Origin: a virus
IMG/VR virus record: IMGVR_UViG_3300025009_000102
Span: 1-63,571 of that record
Length of the DNA: 63,571 bases
Direction: 5' to 3' (one strand)
How positions within the stretch are numbered: the stretch's first letter is position 1; each line of letters opens with the position of its first letter. Below are positions 5,663 to 27,695 of the stretch, in pieces. The translations under genes and the position numbers were made by a program. The notes beneath the pieces are model-generated. The model ran no database searches. It was not told where the DNA came from and saw only the letters and a list, made by a program, of their open reading frames with translations.

Positions 5663-6121
5663 ATGTCGAAAAATAGCATACAGATCAGCGGTGGGGTGAT
5701 GGACGGTAAGTTCCTTCCCCTCTCTACATATGACTGGAACACAGCGCTCAAGATCTATGAGGGCCAGGAAGTTACGGTAACCATTGGGGCACGCAAGAAG
5801 ATCAGGAGTATCCCCCAGAATAGATACTTGTTCGGCGGACCATACAAGGTCATTGCCGAGGCTACCGGCCAGGACGTTGAGTCTATCCATGCATTCTTTA
5901 AGGATAAGTTCCTCAAGGAATATGACAAGGGGCCTATCCCGACAATTCTGTCTACATCAAAACTTGACACCAAGAAATTTATCTGGTATTATAGGCAAAT
6001 AATCCAGTTCGCGGCAGAGTTTCTTGGGATCTTCATCGCCGAGCCGAACGAAAAGGAAATGTGGGGATCGCTGGTTGAACAAATTGAAAAGGAGAATCGT
6101 CGTGTTCGAACAACTAAGTAA
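5663..6121 (+). CDS. NinB-like recombination protein
   Basis: This 152-aa protein resembles lambda NinB/Orf-type recombination mediators: an N-terminal half with IGARKKIRSIPQNRYLFGG, then a helical DVESIHAFFKDKFL segment and a C-terminal FIWYYRQIIQFAAEFLGI block. In lambda, NinB helps load strand-exchange or annealing proteins and can replace RecFOR; a similar role beside the annealing protein and exonuclease downstream is inferred. I chose the ATG at 5663 because GGAGGGG lies 3-9 bases upstream. An ATG at 5642 is possible but has no ribosome-binding site. Confidence 0.7.
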   Translation: MSKNSIQISGGVMDGKFLPLSTYDWNTALKIYEGQEVTVTIGARKKIRSIPQNRYLFGGPYKVIAEATGQDVESIHAFFKDKFLKEYDKGPIPTILSTSKLDTKKFIWYYRQIIQFAAEFLGIFIAEPNEKEMWGSLVEQIEKENRRVRTTK

Positions 6122-6215
6122 AATAGGTATTTACAACTGGACTGACATTGCCCTGACCGTTGCTGTTTTCGTATCGGCAATGTTGATGGGTGCCCTGTCG
6201 GTGGTCCTGCGATGA
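6102..6215 (+). CDS. single-pass membrane peptide, 37 aa
   Basis: A GTG start at 6102 is preceded by GGAG with a 7-base gap, inside the end of the NinB-like gene (20-base overlap). The peptide is almost entirely one hydrophobic helix (residues 14-37, WTDIALTVAVFVSAMLMG). Its stop overlaps the next start as ATGA at 6212-6215. No family is recognised. Confidence 0.5.
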   Translation: MFEQLSKIGIYNWTDIALTVAVFVSAMLMGALSVVLR

Positions 6216-6538
6216 GCGTCGTCAGAAACAGTGCCAGGGGTAAGCAGTGTGAGGTCAGGATTCCTGGGGTCTGCAGCTTCGACCCATCCACGGTTGTCCT
6301 GGCGCACATGAATGGTGGTGGTGTAGGGTATAAGGTCATTGATATCCACGGAGCATACTGCTGTGCAAAGTGACACGATATTATAGACCGTCGTGCCCCC
6401 GTGCCGGGGCCGTACACATACGATGAGGTTATCATTATGTTTTATGAGGCGATCTTTCGCACTCAGCTGATAATGATAAGAGAGCAATTGATAACTTATA
6501 AGGGGATTGATCATGGCAGACAAAAAAGAAAATGGTAA
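6212..6538 (+). CDS. DUF1364 nuclease-like gene interrupted by an in-frame TGA
   Basis: The first 53 codons match the DUF1364 family (NinG-neighbour nuclease-like proteins of lambdoid phages): SVVRNSARGKQCEVRIPGVC, then VLAHMNGGG and HGAYCCAK. The expected next residues are the metal-binding C-H-D, but the codon for that Cys is TGA (6371-6373). The same frame then continues as HDIIDRRAPV and a typical family C-terminus (YDEVIIMFYEAIFRTQLIMI) to TAA at 6536-6538. So a single base turned a conserved Cys codon into a stop, or the TGA is read through or recoded. Without readthrough the product is a 53-residue stub. The gene overlaps both neighbours. Confidence 0.7.
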
Positions 6539-7388
6539 GTCGGTGCAGGAAATAATCTTGGAAGGCCTGGAAAAACTTAGAGCGCCGTTCTCCGAAGAAT
6601 GTGTCAACCTGAAGCCTAAGCCGACAAAGGCCCAGAGGGATTGCCCGCCGAAGGACAAGGTGTTCTGTGACAAATGCAAGCAATATCACCACCCTGCTGT
6701 TATTCATCTCTCGTATGTCGGTCACGCAGCACTGACCCAGCGCCTGCTCGAAGTCGACCCGATGTGGGATTGGGAACCGTTCGCAATCGGGTCCAACGGC
6801 CTGCCGCAGTACGATGAAAATGGCGGTTTATGGATACGCCTGAAAGTCCTCGGCATGGAGCGGATTGGTTATGGAGCGCCTGATTTCAACGAGTATAAGG
6901 TCCAGCCGGATATGGTCAAGGAGTCGATTGGCGACGCCCTTCGTAATGCTGCTATGAGGTTCGGCGCTGCCCTGGAGTTGTGGCACAAGGGAGAACTCCC
7001 CAGCACCACGGTCGGATCTGGCCAGCCACCAGCCGAAGAGCAGGAGGCACCGGCAACCATCACCAAAAAACAGATGGCTGAGTTGACCAAGGAATTCGTG
7101 GCCCGTGGCGTAAATGTCACGAAGTTTCTCAAGCTTGTTAATATCGCAAGTATCGAGGCGATTCCCCAGGCTCAGTTCGAGAGTGTTATCGCGAAGGCCA
7201 GGACCAAGCCACTGCTGAAAGATCATAAGAAGCCAGAGGAAAAACCGGCTGAACCTGAGAAGCCACCGGCAACGATCAACTGCCCGCAGGCCCCTGGTCT
7301 TGTCCTGAGCGGTGCAATGTGCGCAGAGGCCCCATGCTCGGCAACCTGTGAAGAGTATAAGAAATTCAAAGAGGCGCAGGGAATATGA
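6513..7388 (+). CDS. Rad52/Sak-like single-strand annealing protein
   Basis: This 291-aa protein has a core that matches phage Rad52/22-like annealing proteins: YVGHAALTQRLLEVDPMWDW, GGLWIRLKVLG and ESIGDALRNAAMRFGAALEL (residues about 68-165). It would anneal complementary single strands resected by the YqaJ exonuclease encoded next, with which it shares an ATGA overlap (7385-7388). A CDKC knuckle lies near residue 52. The C-terminal third is proline- and lysine-rich and ends in a Cys cluster (CPQAPG, CAEAPCSATC), resembling a short zinc-binding tail. The ATG at 6513 has AAGGGG 8-14 bases upstream; a TTG at 6507 is less likely. Confidence 0.75.
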   Translation: MADKKENGKSVQEIILEGLEKLRAPFSEECVNLKPKPTKAQRDCPPKDKVFCDKCKQYHHPAVIHLSYVGHAALTQRLLEVDPMWDWEPFAIGSNGLPQYDENGGLWIRLKVLGMERIGYGAPDFNEYKVQPDMVKESIGDALRNAAMRFGAALELWHKGELPSTTVGSGQPPAEEQEAPATITKKQMAELTKEFVARGVNVTKFLKLVNIASIEAIPQAQFESVIAKARTKPLLKDHKKPEEKPAEPEKPPATINCPQAPGLVLSGAMCAEAPCSATCEEYKKFKEAQGI

Positions 7389-7987
7389 TTATCCTTGAAT
7401 GTGAACAGCGGACCCCTGAATGGTATGCGGCCAGGGTTGGAAAACCAACGGCCAGCGGTTTCTCGAAAATCGTCACATCAACCGGCGAGCGGAGTAAGTC
7501 GAGGGAAGGGTACTTATACGAACTCGCCGGTGAGCGGTTGAGCGGTGTCATGGTTGAGAGTTATGTGTCAAGCTGTATGAGCTGGGGTATCAGGACCGAG
7601 GATAAGGCCGCTGAGATGTTGGAGTTTATGGAGGATATTGAAACATCCAAGGTCGGTATGTGCCTTACTGACGATATGTCTGCAGGTTGCTCCCCGGATC
7701 GCCTGGTGGTCGGTGTTGAAAAGGGTGTCGAAATAAAGTGCCCGAAGCTGAAAACGCACCATGAATACCTGGCCCTCAACCGACTCCCCCCTGAGTACGT
7801 TCAGCAGGTGCAGGGGTCGATGTGGGTAACCGGTTACCGGCAATGGTATTTCGTCTCGTATTTTCCTGGAACAAAGCCGTTGATCCTCACCATAGATCGT
7901 GACGAGAATTTTATCTCGAAACTGCACCGTGAGATGCTTATATTCTGTAGTGACCTTGAGCGTTTAATAAGGGAACTATCAGAGTGA
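7385..7987 (+). CDS. YqaJ / lambda-exonuclease-family recombination nuclease
   Basis: This 200-aa protein belongs to the YqaJ viral recombinase family. It starts with the QRTPEWYAARVGKPTAS block and contains MSWGIRTEDKAAEM, the active-site CSPDR (Asp) and VEIKCPKLKTH (E-x-K) segment, and the YVQQVQGSMWVTG motif. It degrades double-stranded ends 5' to 3' to make single strands for the annealing protein encoded immediately upstream, the same pairing as lambda Exo/Beta. Length is normal for the family. Confidence 0.9.
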   Translation: MIILECEQRTPEWYAARVGKPTASGFSKIVTSTGERSKSREGYLYELAGERLSGVMVESYVSSCMSWGIRTEDKAAEMLEFMEDIETSKVGMCLTDDMSAGCSPDRLVVGVEKGVEIKCPKLKTHHEYLALNRLPPEYVQQVQGSMWVTGYRQWYFVSYFPGTKPLILTIDRDENFISKLHREMLIFCSDLERLIRELSE

Positions 7988-7996
7988 GGTAATAAT

Positions 7997-8887
7997 ATGA
8001 ATAGAGCAACCTGGCAGTATGCTTTAGCCCTTGAGGGGGAATTTAAGCGGCGAGGAAAAGTTTTCTCCCGCAATATGATACAGGAATCAATGAAGTGCAG
8101 TGTTGCCCAGGCGAGACTTATTGACTGGGGTCTTAAGCACCGGGATATTATCAGGCTCAAAAAGGTTGACGACAACATTGAGGCTGGCAAGAAGGTGTTA
8201 ATACTGAACGATATCCATATACCATTTCAGGACCAGATTGCGCTCGATGCAGCGCTACAGTTCGGTGACTCATACAGACCTGATGTGGTGATTATTCTTG
8301 GTGATGCCATGGACTTTTACCAATGCTCACGTTTCACCAGGAAGGTTGGTAAGCCCAACATAAAGGAGGAGCTTAGGCGCGGTCGGGCGTTCCTGAGCGA
8401 TCTTCGCCAGAGGTTCCCCGATGCGAAGATCATCTACCTTGAGGGTAACCACGAGAGCCACCTTGAGCGGTATATCCTGGAGCATGCTGTCGAGATCGCC
8501 GACCTGGTTGACGACCTCCTGATTAACAAGCTTGGTTTACACGAGCTTAACATTGAATATCGGAAAAACTTCTTCCGTATCGGCAAGTTATGGTATCTCC
8601 ATGGTCACGAGAAACCTGGCGGTGGAAACGCCGAGTACGTTACCAACGTTATGTTCAAATACACAATTGACCATACCATCTTCGGGCATCACCATCGCAC
8701 CCAGGAAAAAATATTCAAGCGTGTTGACGAGTCAACTTTATGGGTCGGGGCAAACGGTTGTCTGTGCGGGAAGCTTGAGTATGCCCCGCTAAACAACTGG
8801 AATCATGGGTTTGCTACCATCGACTACGGTAATAACGGGACGTTCCGGGCACACCTCCATAAGATCCAGGACGGAACGATCTACTAA
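7997..8887 (+). CDS. calcineurin-like metallophosphoesterase with N-terminal HTH
   Basis: This 296-aa protein has a complete metallophosphoesterase set: D72-x-H74 (NDIH), GDAMD at 102-106, GNHE at 150-153, a HGHEKPG block, and GHHHRT near 225. About 55 residues in front look like a small helical DNA-binding domain (SRNMIQESMKCSVAQARLID). Phage members act on DNA ends, 2',3'-cyclic phosphates or nucleotide second messengers; the substrate here is unknown. Placement directly after the exonuclease suggests DNA repair or recombination. It is the last gene before the operator/promoter at 8894-8943. Confidence 0.85.
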   Translation: MNRATWQYALALEGEFKRRGKVFSRNMIQESMKCSVAQARLIDWGLKHRDIIRLKKVDDNIEAGKKVLILNDIHIPFQDQIALDAALQFGDSYRPDVVIILGDAMDFYQCSRFTRKVGKPNIKEELRRGRAFLSDLRQRFPDAKIIYLEGNHESHLERYILEHAVEIADLVDDLLINKLGLHELNIEYRKNFFRIGKLWYLHGHEKPGGGNAEYVTNVMFKYTIDHTIFGHHHRTQEKIFKRVDESTLWVGANGCLCGKLEYAPLNNWNHGFATIDYGNNGTFRAHLHKIQDGTIY

Positions 8888-8893
8888 TTTTCT

Positions 8894-8942
8894 TCATACA
8901 CGATACATTTTTCTCTTGACCACAGATCTGTATCGTGTATGA
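8894..8942. promoter_or_regulatory. 14-bp perfect palindromic operator
   Basis: TCATACACGATACA (8894-8907) and its exact inverted copy TGTATCGTGTATGA (8929-8942) are separated by 21 bases. The spacer holds the -35 box (8916-8921), and the right arm overlaps the -10 (8938-8943). Occupancy by a dimeric regulator would cover the whole promoter. As an RNA the arms would form a long-loop hairpin after the metallophosphoesterase gene, but no T-run follows, so a DNA operator is the better reading. Confidence 0.75.
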
Positions 8943-8943
8943 T
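8916..8943 (+). promoter_or_regulatory. operator-controlled promoter for the ssb/parB/ruvC operon
   Basis: TTGACC (8916-8921), a 16-base spacer and TATGAT (8938-8943) form a strong sigma-70 promoter 57 bases before the next start. The upstream T-rich sequence resembles the other early promoters of this phage. Confidence 0.8.
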
Positions 8944-8999
8944 GAAATTGTACCTGGTGTTCCACAGTGAATAGCAAATGAATAGAACGGAGGTGGATC

Positions 9000-9236
9000 A
9001 TGACGCGACACGAATTCTTGGTAGAGAAAATCGAAGCAGTTTCCCACGCAAAAACCAACGGCCTCGCCCCTGTTGAGAAAACCTTCTCTCATAGGGGTAT
9101 GTGCGCCACGTTCCGCTACAATCAGCTTGGCGCTCTGGATGTCGAGGTGTTTGTCGGTGAGTGCAGGCTTTTCCGCGCACCTGCCAACTTGGTCCTGACC
9201 GCTATGCAAAATGGTTACACAATCAAGGAGGGTTAA
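9000..9236 (+). CDS. hypothetical protein, 78 aa
   Basis: Not recognised. It is an alpha/beta protein with no membrane segment. It is the first gene after the operator-controlled promoter, with a strong GGAGGTGG ribosome-binding site, and the next gene starts directly at its stop. Being promoter-proximal, it could be a small regulator, but no HTH is evident. Confidence 0.7.
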   Translation: MTRHEFLVEKIEAVSHAKTNGLAPVEKTFSHRGMCATFRYNQLGALDVEVFVGECRLFRAPANLVLTAMQNGYTIKEG

Positions 9237-9989
9237 ATGGCAAAGAAAAAAGCGAGTCCGGAGCAACCGGTTGAGCAAGCGGTTGAGGAGCGAGCGTTAA
9301 TTCAGGCCGAAAGTATCAAGCCAGCTGTAATCTTTTCCGACAAGGGAGAGATGGATAAGCTTCTGCAGCTGATCAAAAAACAGGTGGACGGGTTTATCGC
9401 CGACACTAAAACTGCGGTTGGTCGCAAGAATATCGCATCAATCGCCTACAAGGTAGCTCAATCAAAGGTGGTGATCGATGCTAAGGGGAAGGATTTCGTG
9501 GCAGATCAGAAGAAAGCCCTTAAAGTGGTGGATGATCTTCGGAAACACGCAAGAGACTTCCTTGAAGATCTCCGCGAAGATGTCAGAAAACCTCTGTCGG
9601 ATTACGAGGCGGCGATTGAGCGTGAAAAACTCGCCAAAGCAGCTGCTGAAAAGTACGTGGCCGACTGGGCGGAGGCGCTGTATGACAATGAAATCTACGA
9701 CCGCGATGCGAAATTGCGTGCGGCTGAGATGAAACTGAAGGTTGCCGAAGAGGTGACCAAAACTATCGCTGCCTCCATACCGTCACTGGCCAATAGTATT
9801 GCCTCTGGCGGAGGACTTGGCACTACTGTCGAGAGAAAGAAAGAGGATGCGACCCAGGACCGCAAGAAGGAGGTCAATGTCGCCATCCGCGACTGGTTTG
9901 TTGGAAATGGTGTCGATATTGAGATTGCCAACAGGATGGTATTCGATATCGTTACCGGTAAGGTCAGATACCTGACCATTAATTATTGA
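9237..9989 (+). CDS. coiled-coil protein of the recombination/SSB cluster, 250 aa
   Basis: Residues about 40-185 are predominantly helical and heavily charged with heptad-like spacing (VVDDLRKHARDFLEDLREDVRKP), giving a long coiled coil. A short Gly/Ser-rich hinge follows (SIASGGG) and then a compact C-terminal domain (VAIRDWFVGNGVDIEIANRM). Phages often carry a coiled-coil gene of this size beside annealing proteins or SSB, but I cannot assign a function. No catalytic motif is visible. Confidence 0.75.
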   Translation: MAKKKASPEQPVEQAVEERALIQAESIKPAVIFSDKGEMDKLLQLIKKQVDGFIADTKTAVGRKNIASIAYKVAQSKVVIDAKGKDFVADQKKALKVVDDLRKHARDFLEDLREDVRKPLSDYEAAIEREKLAKAAAEKYVADWAEALYDNEIYDRDAKLRAAEMKLKVAEEVTKTIAASIPSLANSIASGGGLGTTVERKKEDATQDRKKEVNVAIRDWFVGNGVDIEIANRMVFDIVTGKVRYLTINY

Positions 9990-9997
9990 GGTAAAAC

Positions 9998-10420
9998 ATG
10001 AATCAAGTAATTTTGCATGGTGCGTTAGGGAGAGATCCGGAGGTCAGGTATACACAGAGCGGTACTGCTGTGTGTAATATGTCCATGGCAACGTCCGAGA
10101 AATACAAGGACAAGAATGGGGAAATGCAGGACAACACCACCTGGCATAACCTGGTACTCTGGGGAGTATCCGCCGACAATGCGGGGAAGATCCTGGGAAA
10201 GGGTGACGAGGTTCTCGTTCACGGGAAGCTGCAGAACCGGAAGTGGAAGGATAAAGACGGAAACGACAGGACTTCCGTGGAGGTTGTTGTCGACTTCTGG
10301 AGAGTAACCAAATCGAAAGATCCCCAGCAGTCCCGTAACAACGGCGGAAGTAGGAACAACGGTGGTGAAAGGGGTGGTTATGCCGGTGATAATGGAACCG
10401 GTGAAGATGTTCCCTTTTAA
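9998..10420 (+). CDS. ssb: single-stranded DNA-binding protein
   Basis: This is a 140-aa bacterial-type SSB. The OB fold begins MNQVILHGALGRDPEVRYTQ and continues with NMSMATSEKYKD, TTWHNLVLWG and GDEVLVHGKLQNRKW. A glycine/asparagine-rich linker leads to the acidic partner-binding tail DVPF, equivalent to DDIPF of host SSBs. It coats single-stranded DNA during replication and recruits host or phage partners through the tail. Length is slightly short because of a reduced linker. Confidence 0.95.
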   Translation: MNQVILHGALGRDPEVRYTQSGTAVCNMSMATSEKYKDKNGEMQDNTTWHNLVLWGVSADNAGKILGKGDEVLVHGKLQNRKWKDKDGNDRTSVEVVVDFWRVTKSKDPQQSRNNGGSRNNGGERGGYAGDNGTGEDVPF

Positions 10421-10447
10421 TAAAAACAAATAATTAGGAGCGTGAAA

Positions 10448-11302
10448 ATGGGAATTAAAGACTTGGCCAAACGTCGTGCGGACTTATTTTATATCGACCC
10501 TATGATTATCGTCGAGGATGACGGCTGGAACGTGAGGGAGGACACCCCTGAGCTCCTGGCCCACATCCATGAACTTCGCGACAGCATCAAGGCGGTCGGC
10601 GTTAAGGACGCCCTGACTGTCTATATGCGCGGCGACACCCCGGTCCTTACCGATGGCCATTGCCGGTTGGCTGCGGTGAAACTTGCTATTGCCGATGGCG
10701 CTTTAATCCATGCTGTGCCGACGAGGGTTGAGGATAAGACGGCGAACGAGGCCGACCGGGTCGCCACTATGCTGGTGCGTCGAGCTGGAAAGCCATTGAC
10801 CCCACAGGAGCAGTCTTCCGTGGTCAAGCGCCTCATGGCATATGGCTGGACGCAGAAAGAGATCGCGGAAAAAACGGGATATTCTCCGTCGAAGATCGCC
10901 GACCTCGTCGCCCTGAGCGGTGCAAGTATGGAGGTTGCTGGGTTGATCAAGGACGGTAAGGTGTCACCTACCACTGCAGCACGGACCATCCGGAAGCACG
11001 GCCAGGAGGAAGCCGAGAAGAAGCTGAAGGACGCTGTAGATGAGGCTGAGGAATCAGGAAAGGATAAGGTCACCCTCGCCGACATGGCAGGCAAGTCACA
11101 CACCGCCCATCCGCCCGAGATCTGGAATGACGGATTTCACGCCGGGATGATTCATGCCCTTTCTCTCCTGGTCGACAACACCGGCAACATGAAGCTGATC
11201 AAGGAATACCGAAGCATGCTGTTCGCCGATGACAAGATCAGGTTGTCCGTCGCTACCCCGTCCGACCGGCAGATCCTCGAAAGCGTATTCCAGGATCTGT
11301 GA
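10448..11302 (+). CDS. ParB/Srx-like protein with HTH
   Basis: This 284-aa protein has a ParB-type N-terminal domain: LRDSIKAVGVKDALTVYMRG, then the nucleotide-binding TDGHCRLAAVKLA. A KorB/ParB-like HTH follows (YGWTQKEIAEKTGYSPSKIA, residues about 138-158) and then an acidic helical C-terminus. Such phage proteins act in DNA segregation, transcription control or DNA nicking; no ParA partner is seen, so regulation or replication is more likely than plasmid partition. I chose the ATG at 10448 (AGGAG 8-12 bases upstream) over the GTG at 10442. Confidence 0.8.
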   Translation: MGIKDLAKRRADLFYIDPMIIVEDDGWNVREDTPELLAHIHELRDSIKAVGVKDALTVYMRGDTPVLTDGHCRLAAVKLAIADGALIHAVPTRVEDKTANEADRVATMLVRRAGKPLTPQEQSSVVKRLMAYGWTQKEIAEKTGYSPSKIADLVALSGASMEVAGLIKDGKVSPTTAARTIRKHGQEEAEKKLKDAVDEAEESGKDKVTLADMAGKSHTAHPPEIWNDGFHAGMIHALSLLVDNTGNMKLIKEYRSMLFADDKIRLSVATPSDRQILESVFQDL

Positions 11303-11814
11303 TAAGACTCGCCGTAGATCCATCCTTGGAGCATACAGGGTTCGCCGTTGTCGATGACGGCGAACCTGGTGGGTCGGTTATATCGTGCGGTGTTATTGTC
11401 CCTGGGAAACATAAAGGTTTGATCACTATCGAGCGGGCGATGAGGTTGCATGAGATCGCCCTGAATCTCGATAATGTTCTGTATCACTTCTCTATCGAGG
11501 AGATCTTCGCGGAGGTTGCGGTCGGGGCAATTGACCAGGCCTCTGCCTTTTCACTGTTCAGTGTAGGTGGGATGCTGATAGGTCTGTCAACAGGCAGGGG
11601 AATACCGCTCACACTGATCACCCCCAGGGAGATTAAGACCAGGGTGTTCGGTAGAAGTGATGCCAAGAAGAAGGAGATTATGGCCTGGGCGCGTCGAACG
11701 TGGCCCAATGCACCCTTCCCTACACGTGTGGGTGATTTTGAGCATATAGCGGACGCTATGGCCATCTATGAGGCTGGTCTGAAAAAGGGTAACTCAAGGA
11801 GTGTTCAGTTATGA
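11299..11814 (+). CDS. RuvC-like Holliday junction resolvase
   Basis: This 171-aa RNase H-fold nuclease of the RuvC type has its first catalytic Asp in LAVDPSLEHTG (D7), a Glu in EEIFAEVAVG (E72), and a terminal FEHIADAMAI (H149, D152). It would resolve branched DNA before packaging, as replication here looks recombination-driven. The gene starts with GTG overlapping the ParB-like stop by 4 bases. It is shorter than a typical host RuvC but normal for phage versions. Confidence 0.85.
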   Translation: MIRLAVDPSLEHTGFAVVDDGEPGGSVISCGVIVPGKHKGLITIERAMRLHEIALNLDNVLYHFSIEEIFAEVAVGAIDQASAFSLFSVGGMLIGLSTGRGIPLTLITPREIKTRVFGRSDAKKKEIMAWARRTWPNAPFPTRVGDFEHIADAMAIYEAGLKKGNSRSVQL

Positions 11815-12104
11815 GATTTGAAACTATTTTTTATACATCTGCTGGGACACAGGTTGCTGGGAGGGAAAATTTGGTTAAACTGGAGAAGATACAGCGGATC
11901 AAGGCCGTCCTCGACAGTAAACTTAAAACCAGTAATTTGATATCAACTGACCATGCCGCCAGGCTTATTGTGCAGGATGCCGAAAGTGGCGGTGAGCAAT
12001 TTCGGGATATTCAACTCACTATAGACCGAGAGTTTGCATACCTTGAAAGGTTTCTGGATGGCCGGGTGATGAGCGCTGACAGTTCCGGGATGGAGGGGAA
12101 ATGA
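11811..12104 (+). CDS. hypothetical protein, 97 aa
   Basis: Not recognised. It is a helical soluble protein with a central basic stretch (LEKIQRIKAVLDSKLK). It overlaps the resolvase gene and the next gene by 4 bases each (ATGA), so it belongs to the same coupled operon. Confidence 0.65.
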   Translation: MRFETIFYTSAGTQVAGRENLVKLEKIQRIKAVLDSKLKTSNLISTDHAARLIVQDAESGGEQFRDIQLTIDREFAYLERFLDGRVMSADSSGMEGK

Positions 12105-12313
12105 AAACGCTTGACCACCAAACGTGCTACGATATCGTCTCTAAAATTGCCGAAACTATCGGTGTCACCCTGCCGGGAATCGACCAGGAGGTTGATGAAC
12201 ACTTCGTCAGGTTTATTAAACACACGATATGCGGGAGCGTCGGGCGTGCTTTCCGTAACAGCAATGAGTATATACGGCTGGCGTCAATTATCAACGGGAT
12301 GCCGAAGTCGTGA
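12101..12313 (+). CDS. hypothetical protein, 70 aa
   Basis: Not recognised. It is a small helical protein and the last gene of the plus-strand operon. Its final 30 bases overlap tail-to-tail with the minus-strand gene 12284-12577, and no hairpin terminator is visible at the convergence. Confidence 0.6.
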   Translation: MKTLDHQTCYDIVSKIAETIGVTLPGIDQEVDEHFVRFIKHTICGSVGRAFRNSNEYIRLASIINGMPKS

Positions 12314-12577
12314 CATGATATCCCGGTGATTATTCTCCACGATCTCTTTAAGGTGGTGAACATCTGACGCCAAATTTTCGAGTCTGAGCTTATCGCTCGT
12401 TCGCTCAGACTCGATAAATATTTCAAACTCTGCCTTTCTAATTGACGGATCGATCTTTTCTTTGCGCTCAATCTCGCCGACCTTGTACTCAAGCCTGGCA
12501 ATCCACACCGATGCACCGAACAGGGCCATAAATATGGCTGCGAATATTCCGTACCACTCTTTGATAAGATCGAACAT
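12284..12577 (-). CDS. membrane-anchored coiled-coil protein, lysis-cassette candidate
   Basis: This 97-aa protein has one N-terminal membrane segment (residues 9-27, YGIFAAIFMALFGASVWIA) and a long charged coiled coil (EYKVGEIERKEKIDP onward). The architecture is that of an inner-membrane spanin (Rz-like) or a holin accessory. It is the last gene of the late operon, directly after the holin candidate. No Rz1 is nested in it, and the only phage lipoprotein recognised lies beside the endolysin at 59985-60560. Confidence 0.55.
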   Translation of the reverse strand: MFDLIKEWYGIFAAIFMALFGASVWIARLEYKVGEIERKEKIDPSIRKAEFEIFIESERTSDKLRLENLASDVHHLKEIVENNHRDIMSRLRHPVDN

Positions 12578-17141: not shown

Positions 17142-20100
17142 TCAATCCCGACCTGTAATTTGGTTGTACCGCTTATTAAACTCCACCTGAATCGCATTGA
17201 TTCTCTCGTCGATTTTCCCGGCATCCTTGCCGTTGGCTTCGATCTGCTTCTTCATTTTATGCAGTTCATCCAAGCGCTTCTCTGTATCCTGGAATTTTCC
17301 GACCAGTTTATATACCGGTTCCCTAACAAGCGAAGGACGCTCCTCCCTGGTGGCGTTCTTGAGTTCGAGGACGAAGGTTTTCATCTCATCCCTGTTCTCT
17401 GAATAAACTCTTCGGTCAATACTCTCTGGCATAACTCCTGCAAACCTCCTAATGATCGGTACGTTCTTGATTGATACATCACCCTCGGCGATTGCGAACG
17501 GCAGGTTGAGGGTATCTTTTACCACCCGACCAGCACCACCGGCAATAGTCTCAAGGACCATTTCTATCGATTCCGGGGAGACGGATATCATCCCCTCCCT
17601 GAACTTACTCCCGCCGGTCATCTCGTTCAGCCACTTCGTGACCTCCCTGGACACCGGGTTGACATCCTTATAGTATCGCTCACTGTCAGGTTGATTCATC
17701 CATGGGTTGAGCGGTGGCATGAGGTTTCCGCCGTGCCACGCCTTGTTCTCGATGATCTGCGCCATCGGGTCAAGCACGGTTGGCATTACCGTCTGGAGTA
17801 ACGTTCCAGCTGCAAGCGGATTGAGGTTGTTCATCACCGTCGTACCCCACCTTAATCCAGCCTCGACCGGGTTTCCGCCGCGAAGTATCGTGGCTATCTC
17901 GTCACCGAATTTAAAGAAGATGTTATACCCGTATGCCATTGGGAACCTGACATGCAATCCATCCCCACCAGGAACAAAGAAGATCATATTACGCTCAAAG
18001 AGTCCGGGGTTTGTCCTCTTCAGCTTGTCGTATCGGCTCTCACCGTCTTCATCGTCGCCACCAGCTGCAGCGCCAAGCAGATTGACCGCTATGCCAAGAC
18101 CAACGATGCCGGTAACAATCTTCTGGACCTTAGCGGATGACGAAACAGCCTGCATCATCCTGATGTTGCCCTGTATTCCTGCGTTCGCGAACATCCATGC
18201 GGCGTTGATTGTCGGGCCTGCCGTTCCGTGTTTTGTGAAGTCGATGGTGAGGTTTGAGGCTATCCTGCCAGCCTGCAGCTTGTCTGTGCCACGATCTACC
18301 AGGGCCTTGTAGGTAGCAACCCTGACACCGTTTTCTACAGACAGATTGACGCTTTCGATGAAATTACCAAGCCTCTTGAAGTTTTCCCGGACCTTGTGTC
18401 CGCCCTCCTTGGTCGCGATATCGTATTCAATCTGTTCGGCCAGTTGCTTCACATCCTCATACGACTGCGCCCACCCCATGACAACACCATGAGCTGCGGC
18501 GTCCTTATAGATTGCACCCCATTGGCCAGACGGCTTGCCACGCTCTTCCCGGTATATCCCAGCGATAGCATGGCGAATGTTGCCAAAAACCTTCATCTGT
18601 AATCCAGACGCCTCAGTTCCTGACATATTCACGAATGCGGTCTGGAGATCTCTCGTGAAGTTTGGCAATGCAAACTCCGGGGTGAGACTGGTGTTGAGCC
18701 TGGCGAGTATCCTGGTGATTACCCTGGACGCCTTGAGTACCGGGCCTGGATCGGTAGTTTGGCGGTTAAGCGCCTCCATAAATCTTACCGCCTGTGGATT
18801 ATCTTTAGCAACTTCAATGATATGCTTAACGCCATCGACCTTGACGTATGTCTGGTATCTGAGGTCGATCTGTTGGTCAGGATAAAACCTGATATTCCCC
18901 TCGTGGTCATGGTACGGTGCCTTGGCCATTTGCGCGATAGACCACAGCTCCTCGTTAGGGTTGGCCGTCACCATGTCATAAAGCGCTCTTTCTGCTTCGA
19001 GTTTCAGCCGCCTCGATAGGGACGCCTGGTATCTGTCGACAATATGGGCGAGGATATTCACGACGGCCTTGGTTGAGCCAGCGGCTACCTGGGCCTGCGG
19101 GGGCTTGCCAAGTGGACCCCTGCCCGACCTTCCGGTTGGTGCCTTGCCCTCGTCGACCTCCTCCCGGAACAACGGGACATGGTACTTGTACCGACTGGAA
19201 ATATTGGTGTACTCTTCGTCGGTAAGGTCGCCAGAAGAATAGGCTATTCTCAGGGCCTCTTCGTTGATCGCCCTGATCTTCCGTGCTGCCTCGTTCATGG
19301 CGGTATGGCCAGCCCACTGTTTAACAACCTTCTTCGCTTCGGCATCGGTCATACCGGACAACTTGCCCTTCCTGGAATCCCATTCATTGACGATAGACTC
19401 GCGCTTGCCGAGACGGTAGTACATATTATCGAGTCGCTTCTGCCAGTAAACGTCGGTGCCCTTGGCTATCTCCGCCGGGGTCCACTGCCTCGCCTGGAGA
19501 TCCGCCGCTATCTGGTCGATCTGTGCCCGCTGACCGGCGATCACTCCGCCCATCCTTTCGAGCATACTTACCAAATTATCGCGCTTCTCATCCAGCGCCC
19601 TGCTGTTCATGACAAAGTCATCTTGGATGTCGCCAAGTTCGCCCTGCCACTGTTCCCTCTCTTTGTCAGTCATCTGGGCCATCAGCGCATCGATGTAGCC
19701 ACGGGCGTTTGCCCTGCGCATCTGCAGGTTTCTCTCTGGGGCATGCTCTGCGTGCAGGAATTCCTGGACATCCTCAAGCTTGAGTTTGGAGTCGACGATA
19801 AATTGGATAAGCGGCTGGTAAACGTCGATGTCAAATCTCTTCACCTCTGCGGCTAGACGCTTACCAACGAGTCCACGGATAGTGGAGTAGTCCCTCGATG
19901 TAGGTTGCGGTCCTATGCCCTGCTGGACCCTCTCAATTGCCTTGTCCTGATTGTAGAGCCAGGTAGCGAACTCGTCAAACCACCCCTGGAAATCAAACTG
20001 TCCCTTTATCCTATCCAGGAAAGAGATCGATTGAGGCTGCGATGGTGCGTGAATAATACTCCCAGGTATCGATGGGTCGTATTTCGTGAGAAGAACGTCC

Positions 20101-23100
20101 TGTGGATCTTCGCCGAATTTAAGCAATCCCTCACCTCTGAGCATAGCCTCCATATGCTGCCACGGCGGGATGCTGCGACGCTCGGCCTGAGACAGTTTTT
20201 GCCTTGCCTGTACCAACCTGGCCGATACCTCCCCAGTGAGCAATCGGTAATCTCGAAACCCAGCGCCCACCGGATCGTCGGTTAGCTGGATATGCTCAAC
20301 AGCCAGCCTATCGCGAATCTGTCTCAGTGAAGAATACGTTGCCCTTTCTTCCTGTGACAGTTGCCCGAATTTTGACTTATTGGCTATCTCGGTCAGTGCG
20401 CCGTTTATCAGGACGATTCTCCTGATCAGCATCTCTGCCTTAATTTGGATCTTACCGTATTGCGTTTCGAAAGAACCGCCCCTCGCGAAGTTTTCTATAT
20501 CCTGAATGATATGCTGAACTTCGTGGATAACTGTTGACTGTATCTCGTCAGGTGACAGGGATTGATTGAGGAGAAGTATTCTCTTCTCGAAATCCCACGC
20601 CCCAAGCTGCCCAGGTTTCGCCTTTATCGGAGTCACCTTGACGGTTTTCAGTTGCGGATAGAGAGAGTAGATGGTTGGGTGCTTGTAGAGCTTCGAGATA
20701 CTGATCGCCTCGCCAGGTTCAAGCTTACCGTATTGATTGACATCAACCTTGCCCTCGGAGTCGTCTATCTCATACTGCCATTCGCCTGGGATCATCTCCC
20801 ACCAACCTGTTTTCCGCCATATCTCTGAGCGATCAATACCATCTTCCTTCATGGCCTTGGCCTCGACGAGGGTGCTTATGCGTTCGTTTTTTGGCACAAA
20901 ACCATTTTTAACTGCCACTATAAACTGGCCAGTCCTGCCAACGAATTCGTATTTCCCTGGATACTTCTCAGTTAAATATGCAATCCCTGCGTCTATATCC
21001 TCTTTCGTAGTAGAGGCGAGAGCGCTCTGACTACCAGCCATCTGGAACTTAACCAGATCATCTTCGCTGAAAAACGTCTCGGTGTTACCCCTGGCTTCCC
21101 TGCGAATAGCCAGGTCGGCGAGGGCCTTGAAATCCTGTTCGTTGAAGATCTTGTACGAAACACCGAACCTGGTAATGAAGTTCTTGATCATGGCGATGAT
21201 ACGGCGAACCAGGCCGATATCCTCGGAGGTGCTTACCATGTAGGCCAGTACTTCCTCAGAATAATTCTCTGGGGTGGTGTCTTCCGGGACTTGCGCCATT
21301 GCTCGACGGATAGCTTCGCCGGTCCTTGACTGCTCATCGGCTCTTCGCATGATGGTCTTTTTGATCATCTGGAATTCGGCGTTACCCTGCATCATCCTGC
21401 CGATATGAGTGCCGATGGCGTGACGGAGGGAACCCCATAACTCGCCATCGGGAATATTCTCTGGAACGAGGATGGTTTTTCCCGGAACCTCTATACCGAT
21501 AGGACGGTTACCCTCACCCATCTCGGCCAGGGAATAGCCCATTCCTTCAAGTTCTTTCATAGCCTCGTCGTTACTCATAAGCACCACCTTGCCACTGCTT
21601 ACCAGGCGTTTTGCTACACCGGCCTGGTCGCCATTGAGCGATCCGAGTAACCTACCGAAAGCCTCGGTTGGCGTCTGTGACACACCGCCGCGCTTAGTCT
21701 GTTGTAGTTTTATGCCGGGTTGTGCCTGTTCTGTCGCGACTCCCGCTTTAAGTGGCGCGAATACTGCAGCGATCACCTGGTTGTTCCTGGTACTCCAATA
21801 TCCAGTATATCCTGAATCCCTGATCAGCCTTTCATAGATGTTCATCTTATCGGCGAAAGGATTACCAGCCCTTTCCTGCGCGGCCTGCGCCATCAGTCCG
21901 TCCGGGTCAGCTTGAAAGTCGTAGAGATTTTCAGCCTTAACCGTAACGTCGTACCGGTACTGACCGAGGCCAACCTCCTTCACGTATCCGCCACCGACAA
22001 CCCCATAGTATGACCTGTCTACCCAGTTTTCCGGATCTCCAGCCTTCCTTCGCGCCTCAGCCCCAGCTATCCCTGTGCTATACTTGGCGGGGTCTATGGT
22101 CTTCAGCCCAGAAATCTTCGACCAGTGCGCGAGCGTAACGTTGCCGTTTTGGTCAACCGGCAGTGTCAATTGCGCCATCTGGAATTTTGGCTCACCTCTT
22201 GACACGATATCGCTAACTTCATCTGCGGACAGGAGGCGATTTACCTTCATCGCACCGCCTATAATCCAGGCACCACCCTGCATCTTATTAGTTTTGAATC
22301 GATAGAATCCACCAGATGGTATCCTCTCTCGAATATCGCGTGTAGAACTGGCGTCAGCTTCCCCCTGGTAGTTGCGATCAGCCGATATTTCCACCTCTGC
22401 CCATACCCTGTCGGCCTGCATCGTCCCATCTTTTTTCATTAAATGTGGCGCGGTCGGGAGAACCCCAGCATGCCAGCCTGGTCTGGTCGCATACCCTTTT
22501 GTCGGGATAAATTCAGCCTGTATCCACCTCCCTATCGGAGTGGGGGTATTCTTCCCGATAAATAAGGGGAATATCTGGCCTGGCGATTTACTGCTGGTCC
22601 TGAATAGTTTGTATGCAGTGATAGATTTTTTCGGTGTTGGTGCCGGTGAGAAGGACTCCTCGCTCGTCACTACGCCACCGCCAAATCCAATTGCATTATC
22701 GCTGTCGAGAGGAACCCTGCTGCCAATATCCTCGCCGGTAAATTTGGCTATGGCTTCGGCTTCTCGCTCTCGCTGGGTAAGCTGTTTTCCGGAATATCGT
22801 TCGAGGACTTTCTCAAAATCTGCCCGCCGATCACGAATCCACGATTGTAGATCGGGTTGTCCTGCGAGGCTTCTGTGATTAATAACCGCCTGCCCTTCCG
22901 GGTCTTCGTTCCAGTTGTGGTCGTATCCATATTCCCCCTGTGCCCAAATAGAATTGGCATCCTTTATTGCAAGTGAATCTAAGTTGTTATCTATAAACGA
23001 TTGGACATTACCCAAGAAGATCGAGTCTTCTATATAGGGAATTCTCGTTTCGTCGTTTCGGAAATTGATAATTGTTATCTCGTTTTCGCCGGTCCTGGTA

Positions 23101-26100
23101 TACCCAGCTCCATCACCAACGAACATACTAAGCCTTTGGAGGATCTTCTCATTATCAGCCGGGGTGATCGGCTTATCGAATGCAACCACAACTCCACGTG
23201 CGTTAGGTCCGCCGCGCACTACCGTACCGGGGTTTTTCGCTGAATGCTCCATGGCGTCGTTCAGGTTCTCAAACTTACCATTCTTGATAACCTTGCCTGA
23301 CGACTCATTCACAACCCGGAACATCTGCTCTTCAACTGCAGCCTTCGACGACATGGCGAATTGGTTCGCCCTGAACCACGGCACCGCATCTTGTTTGAAG
23401 ATATACTGGACAGCTCTTGCGTACATCGACACGTTACTAACCGGGATTTCCCTATTCACCCTGGCCGGGATCAGGTGGCTAATGTTGTTAGGGTTAACAC
23501 CACCGGCATACGCCCCCTCCCCTGGGGTAACGTATGCGATATGGACACCAACCTTATGGGCGAGGGTGTCGGCGTCGTCCTGAACGATAATCCTCCTTGC
23601 CTCGTCGGTGAACATGCGCTTGACCATCGGCGATGCACCAAGGATCTCATGAGAAAGTTTCGTGCTTGGTACTGCCTCCCAGGTAATAACCTGGATATTC
23701 TTTTGAATAAAGTGACTGAAGTCTGCAGCTGACTTGTTGGCGTTCTCTGTCGCTTTCTCGCTCGAAAGATTAAGGGCGTTCTTTCTCCAGATATCCCTAT
23801 GCTTGGCCAGACCTTCTTTCTCAGTTGGGAGAACAAACCTACCCTTATCGTCAACCGATGCAAGCCCAGCGCCTATCGACTCCGCCCACGTATCCGCCTT
23901 CACCTGTGGGTCTTCATACCGGGCCTTCATGGCGCTCCATATTGCCGCCTGCACCTGGAACGGGGTCCAGTCAGTTCCATCCTTTTCATTCATCCTGTCG
24001 GCGAGCCTGACTATTTCTTTTTCTGAAAAAGAATATTTTCCAGTTCCTTTATCGTTCGATGCGACATTCAGATCATACCCGAATGCCCGGAGCATCCATA
24101 GGTCAATGGTTGCCTTCCTACCCATCTCTCGAAGGATGTTGCGGTCCAGTGTCATCTTTGCCACGGAGCCAGGTTTCGACACAATTATTTCGTGTAGCAA
24201 GTTGAGGTAGAACGAGTTGGTCTTCCTCCCCTCGTAAGGGAACGGCTTGTTGTCGTACAGGGCACCAATAGCTTTTTTATCCTGCTCTGCGGTCTTGACC
24301 TTGAAGTCCTCCCTGGGAGTGCCAGAGGTGTACTGAATCCAGGCGCTTATTGCAAACGTCGTATTGGTGTCAACCCTTGCCTGCGGTGAGTATATGGCGA
24401 TCAGCTGAATGAACTTCTCGGCCTTGGCTACGTCTCCCTGCATCAGCTCCATAATTGCGTCTGCAGACTTCTCGTACCAGTACCGACCAACCTTTCCCTC
24501 ATCGACCAGGGAAGCAACGGTATCGCGCATCTTAACCAGATCTTCCGGGGTTTTCACCCAGCTCGGGGCACCCTTGTATTGCCCACCGGCAGTCGTTTCC
24601 GGCTCCCAGTCTTTGTAGTTATCGAGTGTGTCGTCGGCGAAAAGCGGATGTTTCGTGAGGATATCGTAGCCCTCCTTGAGGAGTGGCCTGACCTTCTCAC
24701 CAAACTCCTTGACCATCTCGACGGACCATGTGGCGATATCGCGAACACCCCGCTCAAAGTACGCCCCACCGACAACGATCAGGTCGGACAGTGCTTCTGG
24801 GTCAACACCGGAGTTCAATTGGCCACGTTTCCCTTTCATCCTGGCGCGGGCCTTGTCAACCTTGGCTTTGGTGAATATCTTGTTCCCGCTGAATTCTTCC
24901 TCGTTATTGTTGTTGACTTTCTCTTCTCGGTTTATTAAAGTACTTACTGAAAGAGAACCCTTTTCAGAGGAGGTTGATATGGAAGTGTTTTTAGAATCCG
25001 GTAATGATACGTTTGTTCTGGATACGAAATCAAAGAGAGTTTTTTTGGTGGACGGTGACAGTCGATCTGAGGTCACAGATCCGGCAACTAAGCTTAAAAT
25101 CTTGGCAGAGTCGTTCGCAAGGTCGGAAAGTCCAGACCGGAAGTCGTCGACCGACTGATCACTTTTTCCCCTCGCCAACGAGGCGGCGGCAGCATAGCCA
25201 CGGTCCATGAGATTATTCAGCATGTCGAGCGTGGCTGTCTTTGTTTCTTCGTCAAAATTGTCGTGAGTCAAATGGCCAATGACTTTGTAGAGGCTATGGA
25301 GTTTCTTCTTAGCCTCAATCATTGGTTCGGTATTGAGCTGAAGCTCATAGATATGCCCGTTTTCTGCCCTCATAGTGAGCTGCATATCCTGGTAACCGCC
25401 GATACTTTCCTGGTCATACCTGTTGTTCCATGACAGGACATCGTCCTGCTTCTGGATCTTACTGAAAGCCTCCTTCATGGACTTGTAATCCGGGTACACC
25501 ACGGTTGTAGCAACGATATCGTCGACCATGGAAACATTTCCGCCGTATTTGTTCTTCAGCTTTAACTCGGCGGTTTCCCTCTTTTTCAATCCGTCGGCAA
25601 AAGGACGAAGCTTCACCTTGCCATTGGTTTCATTGGCGAGTTGAGTCACCCTTTCATTAATTCCACCGACCGCCTCCCGCGCATTCTGATACAGGGTATC
25701 CATGTTTTTACTGACAGACTTACTCTGGCGGATCTTCGAAACCGCCTCCACCTCTGCGTGTTTTGCCCCACGGGATGATAATTCTCTGAGGGTGGTATTT
25801 CCATCAATAACCTTCATGGTTCCGTCGTCCCTGACAACAACTTTAAGCGGGCTTCTCTTTGGACCAGCACCCTCTTTCGCCGCATCCATGCGGGTTTGAG
25901 CTGAACTTAGTTTCTCCTGACTTATCTCTTTGTTGATAGGGATAAGCTTCGAAATCTCTACGGTTTGACTATTGGGGTTTTTCTCAAAGTAGTCACTGGA
26001 GGAGCTATCCTCCCGACTCTTCAGTTTAACCTCAGTATCGTTCTCTGGCATTTGCTCCAGTATCGACGCAGACTCCTGGGCGGATCTCCATGGTCGTGAG

Positions 26101-27695
26101 TCAGTTAATAGCGAGGCGAGGTTGTCGCCTATATGCCGAACCGGTTCGTTATTCTCTGGGGTAGACTCATCGACTGGCCTAGGGGCATCCTGGGAGAATG
26201 CGAATTCGAGGTCTTCCTGGCGAGTCTTCCTGGCTATTTCCGCCTGGTTGCTCGCCTCGATATCCCTCTCGATATCAGTGAGTCCCGCTTCCTGGAACAC
26301 CTTGGCGGAGTCGTATGCTGTCCCGCCAGGCGGATCTCCCCCAGGGCCTTCTGGGGTGGCATCGGGCTTACGCACTGCTGACTTGAATTTGGCGATAGCG
26401 TCGTCCAGGCTCTCTGATTCGAGTATTCCTGCGGACGGAGGGGCCGATTCCCCCGGCGGAGGGGTAGGAGGTTGAACCACTTGCGCACCAGGCTGTACCT
26501 GGATTGGAGTCTTGAACGCCTGCGCTGCAGCTGGCAGTTCCGTGACCAGACCACCGGCACCACCAAGAGTTTCCATAGCAACTTCACCGAGTTGAAAGTC
26601 ACCCTTGGCAACCTGTCCAGCCGCTTCAGATGCTGGCTCTTCCAACAATTGCGTTCCGGCGCTCGCGGCGACAGCGCCAAGCTTACTCGGTATTGACCGG
26701 GCCTTGAGCATTTGTTTTGCAAGATCCCGCACTGCTTCTTTGGTTGCACCGGCACCAAGCTGTTGAGTCGCTTCTGAGATCGCCTTGTTGTACGGCTTGG
26801 CAAGAAGTCGTCCTGCAGCAAGGTTCATCGCCGTCGAAACTGCTGCTGTGGCAGTGGCTTTACTCCTCGCTTTCGATATGGTTTCTTCAATGAATTCATC
26901 ATCGGCCAGGAGAGAGATGACGTTATCCTCCGTAGGCTCAAGCTGTCGCTTATTCAACTCTGCAGCGATCATCCCTTTGAATTCAGATCCAGCCTCAATA
27001 CCCCACTGTCCGAGGAAGCTACCAACTGCAGCACCAGCCTTCTTACCAGCACCACCGAGTCCAAATGGCGTTCCGGCAACAGCGCCAACTGCGCTACCAG
27101 CGACCGTACCGGCCACACCAGGAATCATGTTTGCGGCCTGCTCTGCAGTAAGGTATGCAACACCCTTCGGGTTACCAAATGTTTGACCGGCAACAAACTT
27201 CACTGTATCCCACAGCGCTTTGCTCTTACCGGTAAGACCTTCGGCTTTCTCCCAGCTCTTGGTCAGCTCGCCCGCCTCAACCTGTGCTTCCTCAAGTTCC
27301 GGCGGGGTGTAGTCCTTCGACTCCTCCCTGATCCCCTTGGCGAGAATGGCGGCAGTGTTTGCGTCGATCTCCCCAGTGGCAACGTCGTCCATAAGCCTTT
27401 CGGCATCGGCGAGGTTGCGGCCACCCTTCTTGACCAGCTCCCACATATTCTCAAGAAAACCACGGCTCTCCCCCTCGATCTGGGTTTCAATCATCTCGCG
27501 GGTGCTTTGGCCGAACATGCTGTCAAAGTTCTGCTGCAGGGAGAGTTTTTCTTCCTCCTCAGCCTGGGAGTAGGAAGGGTCGCGGACTACCTCTCTCCAG
27601 AAATCGTTGGCGTACTCGGCGAGAACCAGGTTGCGCTGTTCCTCGTTTGCGGACTGGAATTCGGGGAGGGCGATTACATCTTGAAGTGGTATCAT
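17142..27695 (-). CDS. giant multidomain polyvalent protein, 3,517 aa
   Basis: Segments in order: acidic helical N-terminus; Gly/Ala-rich stretch (about 180-250); low-complexity proline linker (about 400-430); ParB/Srx-like domain with VIDGNTTLREL (D631-G-N); RelA/SpoT-like domain (about 690-800: DDIVATTVVYPDYKSM, then GGYQDMQLTM and YELQLN with E784); helical AYFERGVRDIATWSVEMV (about 985); a GWHAG domain (about 1700-1830, H1742); an ADP-ribosyltransferase-like domain (about 1850-2000, LAHWS with H1857); a degenerate metallopeptidase helix HAIGTH (2092-2097); an intact HEVQH (2391-2395); and a long helical C-terminus with PEFALPNFTRDLQ (about 3008) and a hydrophobic stretch near 3200. This is the layout of large polyvalent proteins, which are thought to enter the host with phage DNA. 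It is coded among the ejection-protein genes. Confidence 0.85.
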   Translation of the reverse strand: MIPLQDVIALPEFQSANEEQRNLVLAEYANDFWREVVRDPSYSQAEEEEKLSLQQNFDSMFGQSTREMIETQIEGESRGFLENMWELVKKGGRNLADAERLMDDVATGEIDANTAAILAKGIREESKDYTPPELEEAQVEAGELTKSWEKAEGLTGKSKALWDTVKFVAGQTFGNPKGVAYLTAEQAANMIPGVAGTVAGSAVGAVAGTPFGLGGAGKKAGAAVGSFLGQWGIEAGSEFKGMIAAELNKRQLEPTEDNVISLLADDEFIEETISKARSKATATAAVSTAMNLAAGRLLAKPYNKAISEATQQLGAGATKEAVRDLAKQMLKARSIPSKLGAVAASAGTQLLEEPASEAAGQVAKGDFQLGEVAMETLGGAGGLVTELPAAAQAFKTPIQVQPGAQVVQPPTPPPGESAPPSAGILESESLDDAIAKFKSAVRKPDATPEGPGGDPPGGTAYDSAKVFQEAGLTDIERDIEASNQAEIARKTRQEDLEFAFSQDAPRPVDESTPENNEPVRHIGDNLASLLTDSRPWRSAQESASILEQMPENDTEVKLKSREDSSSSDYFEKNPNSQTVEISKLIPINKEISQEKLSSAQTRMDAAKEGAGPKRSPLKVVVRDDGTMKVIDGNTTLRELSSRGAKHAEVEAVSKIRQSKSVSKNMDTLYQNAREAVGGINERVTQLANETNGKVKLRPFADGLKKRETAELKLKNKYGGNVSMVDDIVATTVVYPDYKSMKEAFSKIQKQDDVLSWNNRYDQESIGGYQDMQLTMRAENGHIYELQLNTEPMIEAKKKLHSLYKVIGHLTHDNFDEETKTATLDMLNNLMDRGYAAAASLARGKSDQSVDDFRSGLSDLANDSAKILSLVAGSVTSDRLSPSTKKTLFDFVSRTNVSLPDSKNTSISTSSEKGSLSVSTLINREEKVNNNNEEEFSGNKIFTKAKVDKARARMKGKRGQLNSGVDPEALSDLIVVGGAYFERGVRDIATWSVEMVKEFGEKVRPLLKEGYDILTKHPLFADDTLDNYKDWEPETTAGGQYKGAPSWVKTPEDLVKMRDTVASLVDEGKVGRYWYEKSADAIMELMQGDVAKAEKFIQLIAIYSPQARVDTNTTFAISAWIQYTSGTPREDFKVKTAEQDKKAIGALYDNKPFPYEGRKTNSFYLNLLHEIIVSKPGSVAKMTLDRNILREMGRKATIDLWMLRAFGYDLNVASNDKGTGKYSFSEKEIVRLADRMNEKDGTDWTPFQVQAAIWSAMKARYEDPQVKADTWAESIGAGLASVDDKGRFVLPTEKEGLAKHRDIWRKNALNLSSEKATENANKSAADFSHFIQKNIQVITWEAVPSTKLSHEILGASPMVKRMFTDEARRIIVQDDADTLAHKVGVHIAYVTPGEGAYAGGVNPNNISHLIPARVNREIPVSNVSMYARAVQYIFKQDAVPWFRANQFAMSSKAAVEEQMFRVVNESSGKVIKNGKFENLNDAMEHSAKNPGTVVRGGPNARGVVVAFDKPITPADNEKILQRLSMFVGDGAGYTRTGENEITIINFRNDETRIPYIEDSIFLGNVQSFIDNNLDSLAIKDANSIWAQGEYGYDHNWNEDPEGQAVINHRSLAGQPDLQSWIRDRRADFEKVLERYSGKQLTQREREAEAIAKFTGEDIGSRVPLDSDNAIGFGGGVVTSEESFSPAPTPKKSITAYKLFRTSSKSPGQIFPLFIGKNTPTPIGRWIQAEFIPTKGYATRPGWHAGVLPTAPHLMKKDGTMQADRVWAEVEISADRNYQGEADASSTRDIRERIPSGGFYRFKTNKMQGGAWIIGGAMKVNRLLSADEVSDIVSRGEPKFQMAQLTLPVDQNGNVTLAHWSKISGLKTIDPAKYSTGIAGAEARRKAGDPENWVDRSYYGVVGGGYVKEVGLGQYRYDVTVKAENLYDFQADPDGLMAQAAQERAGNPFADKMNIYERLIRDSGYTGYWSTRNNQVIAAVFAPLKAGVATEQAQPGIKLQQTKRGGVSQTPTEAFGRLLGSLNGDQAGVAKRLVSSGKVVLMSNDEAMKELEGMGYSLAEMGEGNRPIGIEVPGKTILVPENIPDGELWGSLRHAIGTHIGRMMQGNAEFQMIKKTIMRRADEQSRTGEAIRRAMAQVPEDTTPENYSEEVLAYMVSTSEDIGLVRRIIAMIKNFITRFGVSYKIFNEQDFKALADLAIRREARGNTETFFSEDDLVKFQMAGSQSALASTTKEDIDAGIAYLTEKYPGKYEFVGRTGQFIVAVKNGFVPKNERISTLVEAKAMKEDGIDRSEIWRKTGWWEMIPGEWQYEIDDSEGKVDVNQYGKLEPGEAISISKLYKHPTIYSLYPQLKTVKVTPIKAKPGQLGAWDFEKRILLLNQSLSPDEIQSTVIHEVQHIIQDIENFARGGSFETQYGKIQIKAEMLIRRIVLINGALTEIANKSKFGQLSQEERATYSSLRQIRDRLAVEHIQLTDDPVGAGFRDYRLLTGEVSARLVQARQKLSQAERRSIPPWQHMEAMLRGEGLLKFGEDPQDVLLTKYDPSIPGSIIHAPSQPQSISFLDRIKGQFDFQGWFDEFATWLYNQDKAIERVQQGIGPQPTSRDYSTIRGLVGKRLAAEVKRFDIDVYQPLIQFIVDSKLKLEDVQEFLHAEHAPERNLQMRRANARGYIDALMAQMTDKEREQWQGELGDIQDDFVMNSRALDEKRDNLVSMLERMGGVIAGQRAQIDQIAADLQARQWTPAEIAKGTDVYWQKRLDNMYYRLGKRESIVNEWDSRKGKLSGMTDAEAKKVVKQWAGHTAMNEAARKIRAINEEALRIAYSSGDLTDEEYTNISSRYKYHVPLFREEVDEGKAPTGRSGRGPLGKPPQAQVAAGSTKAVVNILAHIVDRYQASLSRRLKLEAERALYDMVTANPNEELWSIAQMAKAPYHDHEGNIRFYPDQQIDLRYQTYVKVDGVKHIIEVAKDNPQAVRFMEALNRQTTDPGPVLKASRVITRILARLNTSLTPEFALPNFTRDLQTAFVNMSGTEASGLQMKVFGNIRHAIAGIYREERGKPSGQWGAIYKDAAAHGVVMGWAQSYEDVKQLAEQIEYDIATKEGGHKVRENFKRLGNFIESVNLSVENGVRVATYKALVDRGTDKLQAGRIASNLTIDFTKHGTAGPTINAAWMFANAGIQGNIRMMQAVSSSAKVQKIVTGIVGLGIAVNLLGAAAGGDDEDGESRYDKLKRTNPGLFERNMIFFVPGGDGLHVRFPMAYGYNIFFKFGDEIATILRGGNPVEAGLRWGTTVMNNLNPLAAGTLLQTVMPTVLDPMAQIIENKAWHGGNLMPPLNPWMNQPDSERYYKDVNPVSREVTKWLNEMTGGSKFREGMISVSPESIEMVLETIAGGAGRVVKDTLNLPFAIAEGDVSIKNVPIIRRFAGVMPESIDRRVYSENRDEMKTFVLELKNATREERPSLVREPVYKLVGKFQDTEKRLDELHKMKKQIEANGKDAGKIDERINAIQVEFNKRYNQITGRD

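What the first reader, a model, noticed from the sequence alone, without database searches (positions are those of the whole stretch)
6212..6538. Conserved cysteine codon of a DUF1364 nuclease-like gene is TGA, with intact reading frame after it
Codons before and after TGA 6371-6373 both match one family (HGAYCCAK, stop, HDIIDRR), and the lost residue is the Cys of the metal-binding C-H-D. The downstream 54 codons are not degraded, as would be expected of an old pseudogene. Twenty-one bases after the TGA is a short GC hairpin (GCCCC 6395-6399 with GGGGC 6406-6410, loop CGTGCC), within the distance range known for bacterial selenocysteine insertion elements. Options are selenocysteine at a metal-binding Cys, stop-codon readthrough giving short and long products, a recent nonsense mutation, or an assembly error. 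A Sec-containing phage nuclease would be new.
Basis: partly seen in the sequence, partly recalled or inferred. Interest (0 to 1): 0.78.

Follow-up and report, generated by a model that had tools for sequence, protein, structure and literature searches.

The report
Lone stop codon in phage nuclease
A small zinc-binding nuclease gene of an uncultured phage is interrupted by a single stop codon where every relative has cysteine; it most likely is a recent loss-of-function mutation or a sequence error, and nothing found points specifically to the rare amino acid selenocysteine.

Summary
TGA 6371-6373 lies in frame in an otherwise complete YbcO/DUF1364 gene (6212-6538), exactly at an invariant Cys, and the frame after it is undegraded. 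The selenocysteine reading gains little. All 87 distinct relatives readable at this codon have TGC or TGT, including the orthologs at the same place in two related phages. A motif scan of 2.9 million viral contigs found 104 stretches with TGC/TGT and one TGA match, which is a chance match in another gene. The GC hairpin satisfies the published bacterial SECIS model, but so do 20% of random positions in this window, and the downstream RNA folds no better than shuffled sequence. In about 42 kb alignable to relatives this is the only stop inside a gene body, and 12 of 30 matched genes end in TGA, so the phage uses the standard code. About 13% of single-base nonsense changes in this gene would hit a Cys codon by chance. 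Best reading: one isolated, recent nonsense allele (or a consensus error) that removes a zinc ligand and inactivates the nuclease. Selenocysteine is not excluded, because the host is unknown and neither reads nor very close relatives were available; I put it at about 5%.

The parts
6212..6538 (+). YbcO/DUF1364 (PF07102) HNH-type, treble-clef zinc-finger nuclease-like gene, interrupted at codon 54
6371..6373 (+). in-frame TGA at the codon of the invariant second Cys of the CxxC-H-D motif
   Evidence: TGC/TGT in all 87 distinct relatives readable there
6362..6364 (+). codon 51 (TGT), the other invariant Cys of the CxxC pair; retained
6395..6410 (+). GC hairpin GCCCC-CGTGCC-GGGGC; meets the relaxed bacterial SECIS model but not beyond chance
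   Evidence: no Rfam match
6513..7388 (+). next gene, single-strand annealing protein; its start overlaps the YbcO 3' end by 26 nt
5663..6121 (+). upstream gene, conserved near YbcO in the related phages G001 and G003

Best explanation
The gene is an ordinary phage YbcO-type HNH nuclease that carries one isolated stop codon in this consensus sequence. The simplest history is a single-base change of a Cys codon (TGC or TGT) to TGA, too recent for the rest of the gene to have decayed: either a true nonsense allele in the phage population (about 62%) or an error in the metagenome consensus (about 25%). If real, translation ends after 53 residues; the product keeps the catalytic-type His32 but loses one zinc ligand and the helix that follows, so it should be inactive, while the adjacent annealing protein would still be made from its own start. 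Shown: position, frame, family, invariance of the Cys, uniqueness of the stop. Inferred: recency, inactivity, and the split between allele and error.
For: All 87 distinct readable relatives carry TGC or TGT and none of the 89 sequences has an internal stop before residue 92; the orthologs in two related phages (L122, L123) have the Cys, TGT in L123. A degenerate-motif scan found 104 stretches with TGY and one with TGA, the latter a chance match outside any YbcO gene. The TGA is the only stop inside a gene body in about 42 kb aligned to relatives; 12 of 30 matched ORFs end in TGA. The downstream part is undecayed, as a very recent event predicts. TGA is one base from TGC/TGT, and 5 of 39 nonsense routes in this gene fall on Cys codons.
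Against: A random nonsense change would hit a Cys codon only about 13% of the time, and a hairpin fitting the bacterial SECIS model follows. Reads could not be examined, and records very near the window may be left out of the collections, so the isolation of this stop is known only among relatives of about 57% identity or less.
Confidence: 0.87

Rival explanations
1. Selenocysteine: the host decodes UGA 6371 as Sec with the hairpin 6395-6410 as SECIS, giving a full-length 108-residue selenoprotein in which Sec replaces a structural zinc ligand.
For: TGA exactly at an invariant Cys; frame intact; hairpin with 26-nt spacing, 6-nt loop with G in position 2 and energy -13.2 kcal/mol satisfies the model of PMC13188914; it lies in a length-variable stretch where a hairpin could be accommodated.
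Against: No second TGA case among 87 distinct relatives or in the motif scan; about 20% of random positions satisfy the model and 2.5% fold as low; 5 of 37 Cys-encoding relatives also satisfy it; the 63-nt fold has z = -0.16 against shuffles; no Rfam match; no tRNA-Sec in the record. Known Cys-to-Sec conversions are mostly at redox cysteines (PMC1794560), whereas this is a treble-clef zinc finger.
Confidence: 0.05
2. Leaky UGA readthrough by a near-cognate tRNA gives mainly a 53-residue product and a little full-length protein, possibly as regulation.
For: The frame stays open and undecayed for 54 codons after the TGA.
Against: No relative keeps a stop there; a Trp at this position would break the zinc site (inference); the short product lacks the helix and a zinc ligand, so it has no obvious function.
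Confidence: 0.06
3. The phage reads TGA as an amino acid throughout (alternative code).
For: One in-frame TGA in a conserved gene.
Against: Only this one internal stop in about 42 kb of aligned genes; 12 of 30 matched ORFs end in TGA; no suppressor tRNA, only tRNA-Met.
Confidence: 0.01

Closest known systems
YbcO / DUF1364 (PF07102), PDB 3G27, phrog_131
   Same: Whole-length match, four-Cys pattern and His32, in a phage recombination-gene neighbourhood
   Different: Codon 54, invariant Cys elsewhere, is TGA
Bacterial selenoproteins with Cys/Sec pairs and bSECIS
   Same: TGA aligned with a family Cys and a hairpin at permitted spacing
   Different: Singleton, no redox role at the site, hairpin not beyond chance, host Sec machinery unknown

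Membership tests
YbcO/DUF1364 nuclease-like family | Match above the Pfam gathering score | tested here: met
   83.8 bits against cut-off 29.9 when read through with Cys at the TGA
YbcO/DUF1364 nuclease-like family | Treble-clef Cys set and conserved His | tested here: inconclusive
   C13, C21, C51 and H32 are present; the fourth Cys codon is TGA
Bacterial selenoprotein gene | In-frame UGA aligned with a Cys of homologs | tested here: met
Bacterial selenoprotein gene | bSECIS model: 3-9 nt loop, stem of at least 4 bp, G in the first two loop positions, 16-37 nt spacing, energy at most -7.5 kcal/mol (PMC13188914) | tested here: met
   but about 20% of random positions also meet it, so weakly informative
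Bacterial selenoprotein gene | At least one more Sec(UGA)-containing homolog (criterion for candidates in PMC2398784) | tested here: not met
   0 of 87 distinct relatives; motif scan 104 TGY, one spurious TGA
Bacterial selenoprotein gene | Host has selA, selB, selC, selD | not testable with these tools
   Host unknown; genome scans with YbcO found no relative; no tRNA-Sec in the phage record
UGA-recoded phage | TGA in frame in many genes and absent as terminator | tested here: not met

The most novel reading that the evidence does not exclude
A phage-encoded selenoprotein: a YbcO nuclease with Sec as a treble-clef zinc ligand, made with the host's Sec machinery.
Probability: 0.05. Interest if true: 0.75.

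Novelty: already known. Interest (0 to 1): 0.14.

Why it matters
As it stands, it is a single disrupted gene in one metagenome-derived phage and matters little. If Sec were shown, it would be an unusual case of a phage protein depending on its host's selenium machinery and of Sec as a structural zinc ligand in a nuclease. The controls also give a useful number: in this DNA of about 51% GC the relaxed bSECIS model is met after about one position in five, so a hairpin after a TGA is weak evidence alone.

Tried and rejected
Near-identical contigs by exact pattern across the codon: none. The annealing protein found no usable relative. The one TGA motif hit, L147, looked at first like a second case; it lies off-frame in an unrelated gene, has further stops, and has no significant YbcO similarity. 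Alternative genetic code: rejected. Old pseudogene: rejected. Rfam search of the region: nothing. Literature: no phage selenoprotein surfaced in the searches made, and the 2026 review of the prokaryotic selenoproteome has no occurrence of the words phage or virus in its main text; no paper held all the zinc-ligand Sec terms. The raw stop list is mostly antisense noise and was replaced.

Full report
What is there. The window is a viral record of 63,571 bases. The + strand at 6212-6538 is one frame of 108 codons broken once, by TGA at codon 54. Read through, it is a full-length YbcO/DUF1364 protein: PF07102 at 8.4e-24 (83.8 bits, cut-off 29.9), phrog_131 HNH endonuclease at 2.1e-26, PDB 3G27 at 1.1e-15. 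DUF1364 is a treble-clef zinc-finger fold with a conserved His that superposes on the catalytic His of His-Me finger nucleases (PMC4999995, read). In an alignment of 18 members, C13, C21, C51, C54, H32 and H55 are invariant. The TGA therefore sits on what is, from the fold, most likely one of four zinc ligands (inference; no metal site was modelled here).

Relatives. One search gave 61 loci in viral contigs; at codon 54 all have TGC or TGT. The two long contigs whose terminase is 77% identical to the window's carry YbcO in the same gene neighbourhood with Cys at this codon. Over all loci gathered there are 89 distinct YbcO sequences; 87 can be read at this codon (52 TGC, 35 TGT), and none has an internal stop before residue 92. 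A scan of 2.9 million viral contigs for the motif HGAYCCxx-[codon]-H found 104 stretches with TGY and one with TGA. The TGA one, L147, is not a YbcO gene: the frame there has further stops and the locus has no significant similarity to YbcO. So the TGA is a singleton.

Is the contig itself poor, or its code altered? Comparing the window with its related phages over about 42 kb, the only stop inside a gene body is this one; the others lie before start codons or near the end of an alignment. The reverse comparison finds no isolated internal stop in the relatives' well-matched genes. Of 30 matched ORFs, 18 end in TAA and 12 in TGA. The phage uses the standard code, and the aligned part of the contig is otherwise intact.

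Is the downstream half decayed? Residues 55-91 are 29-54% identical between the window and seven relatives, and 24-49% among those relatives, with the usual excess of third-position differences. An old pseudogene is excluded. A recent stop, a sequence error, readthrough and selenocysteine all predict this, so it does not separate them. The last 26 nt also overlap the start of the next gene, which would preserve them regardless.

Is the hairpin a SECIS? I applied the published bacterial model (PMC13188914: loop 3-9 nt, stem of 4-16 bp, G in the first two loop positions, spacing 16-37 nt, energy at most -7.5 kcal/mol). The window passes: spacing 26 nt, loop CGUGCC, stem 5 bp, -13.2 kcal/mol. But 457 of 2308 TGA triplets in the window (19.8%) and 307 of 1500 random positions (20.5%) pass too, and 2.5% of random positions fold as low. 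Five of 37 distinct Cys-encoding relatives pass after their Cys codon. The 63-nt fold has z = -0.16 against shuffles, and Rfam has no match. The hairpin is a weak argument, and the GC-rich codons of RAPVPGP suffice to explain it.

Weighing. With a Cys codon at position 54, 5 of the 39 single-base nonsense routes in the gene (13%) fall on Cys codons. Against this stand the absence of a second UGA member, which a published survey asked for because single cases may be sequencing errors (PMC2398784), the structural rather than redox nature of the residue (PMC1794560), the lack of any tRNA-Sec in the phage, and an unknown host. I judge Sec about 5%, other readthrough about 6%, a real recent nonsense allele about 62%, a consensus error about 25%. 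These are judgements, not computed probabilities.

Mechanism if real. Translation of the gene probably couples to the upstream small ORF (ATGA overlap at 6212) and stops after residue 53. The product lacks one zinc ligand and the helix that follows, so loss of nuclease function is expected. The next gene, an annealing protein, has its own start at 6513. All of this paragraph is inference from sequence.

Noticed in passing
35318-36670 and 36673-37986 (-): Two adjacent ORFs both match the same proteins of the related phage G003 (42-60% identity), so they look like tandem paralogs in the structural region.
   Followed up: no
2-352 and 63262-63555: One ORF of the related phage matches stretches at both ends of the window, suggesting repeated or paralogous genes at the record ends, or a permuted genome.
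   Followed up: no
17142-27695 (-): A single ORF of 3517 codons, conserved in the related phage at about 45-55% identity; role not determined.
   Followed up: no
6741-7007: Part of the annealing-protein gene is about 67% identical at DNA level to that gene in mycobacteriophages such as Galactic, the only phage DNA matches for 6000-12500.
   Followed up: no
L122, L123: The orthologs in the related phages keep the Cys but have lost the usual D..(I/L)D(R/G)R after CH (CHNVLHHGHP, CHYVLHHGHP), so the motif itself drifts in this phage group.
   Followed up: no
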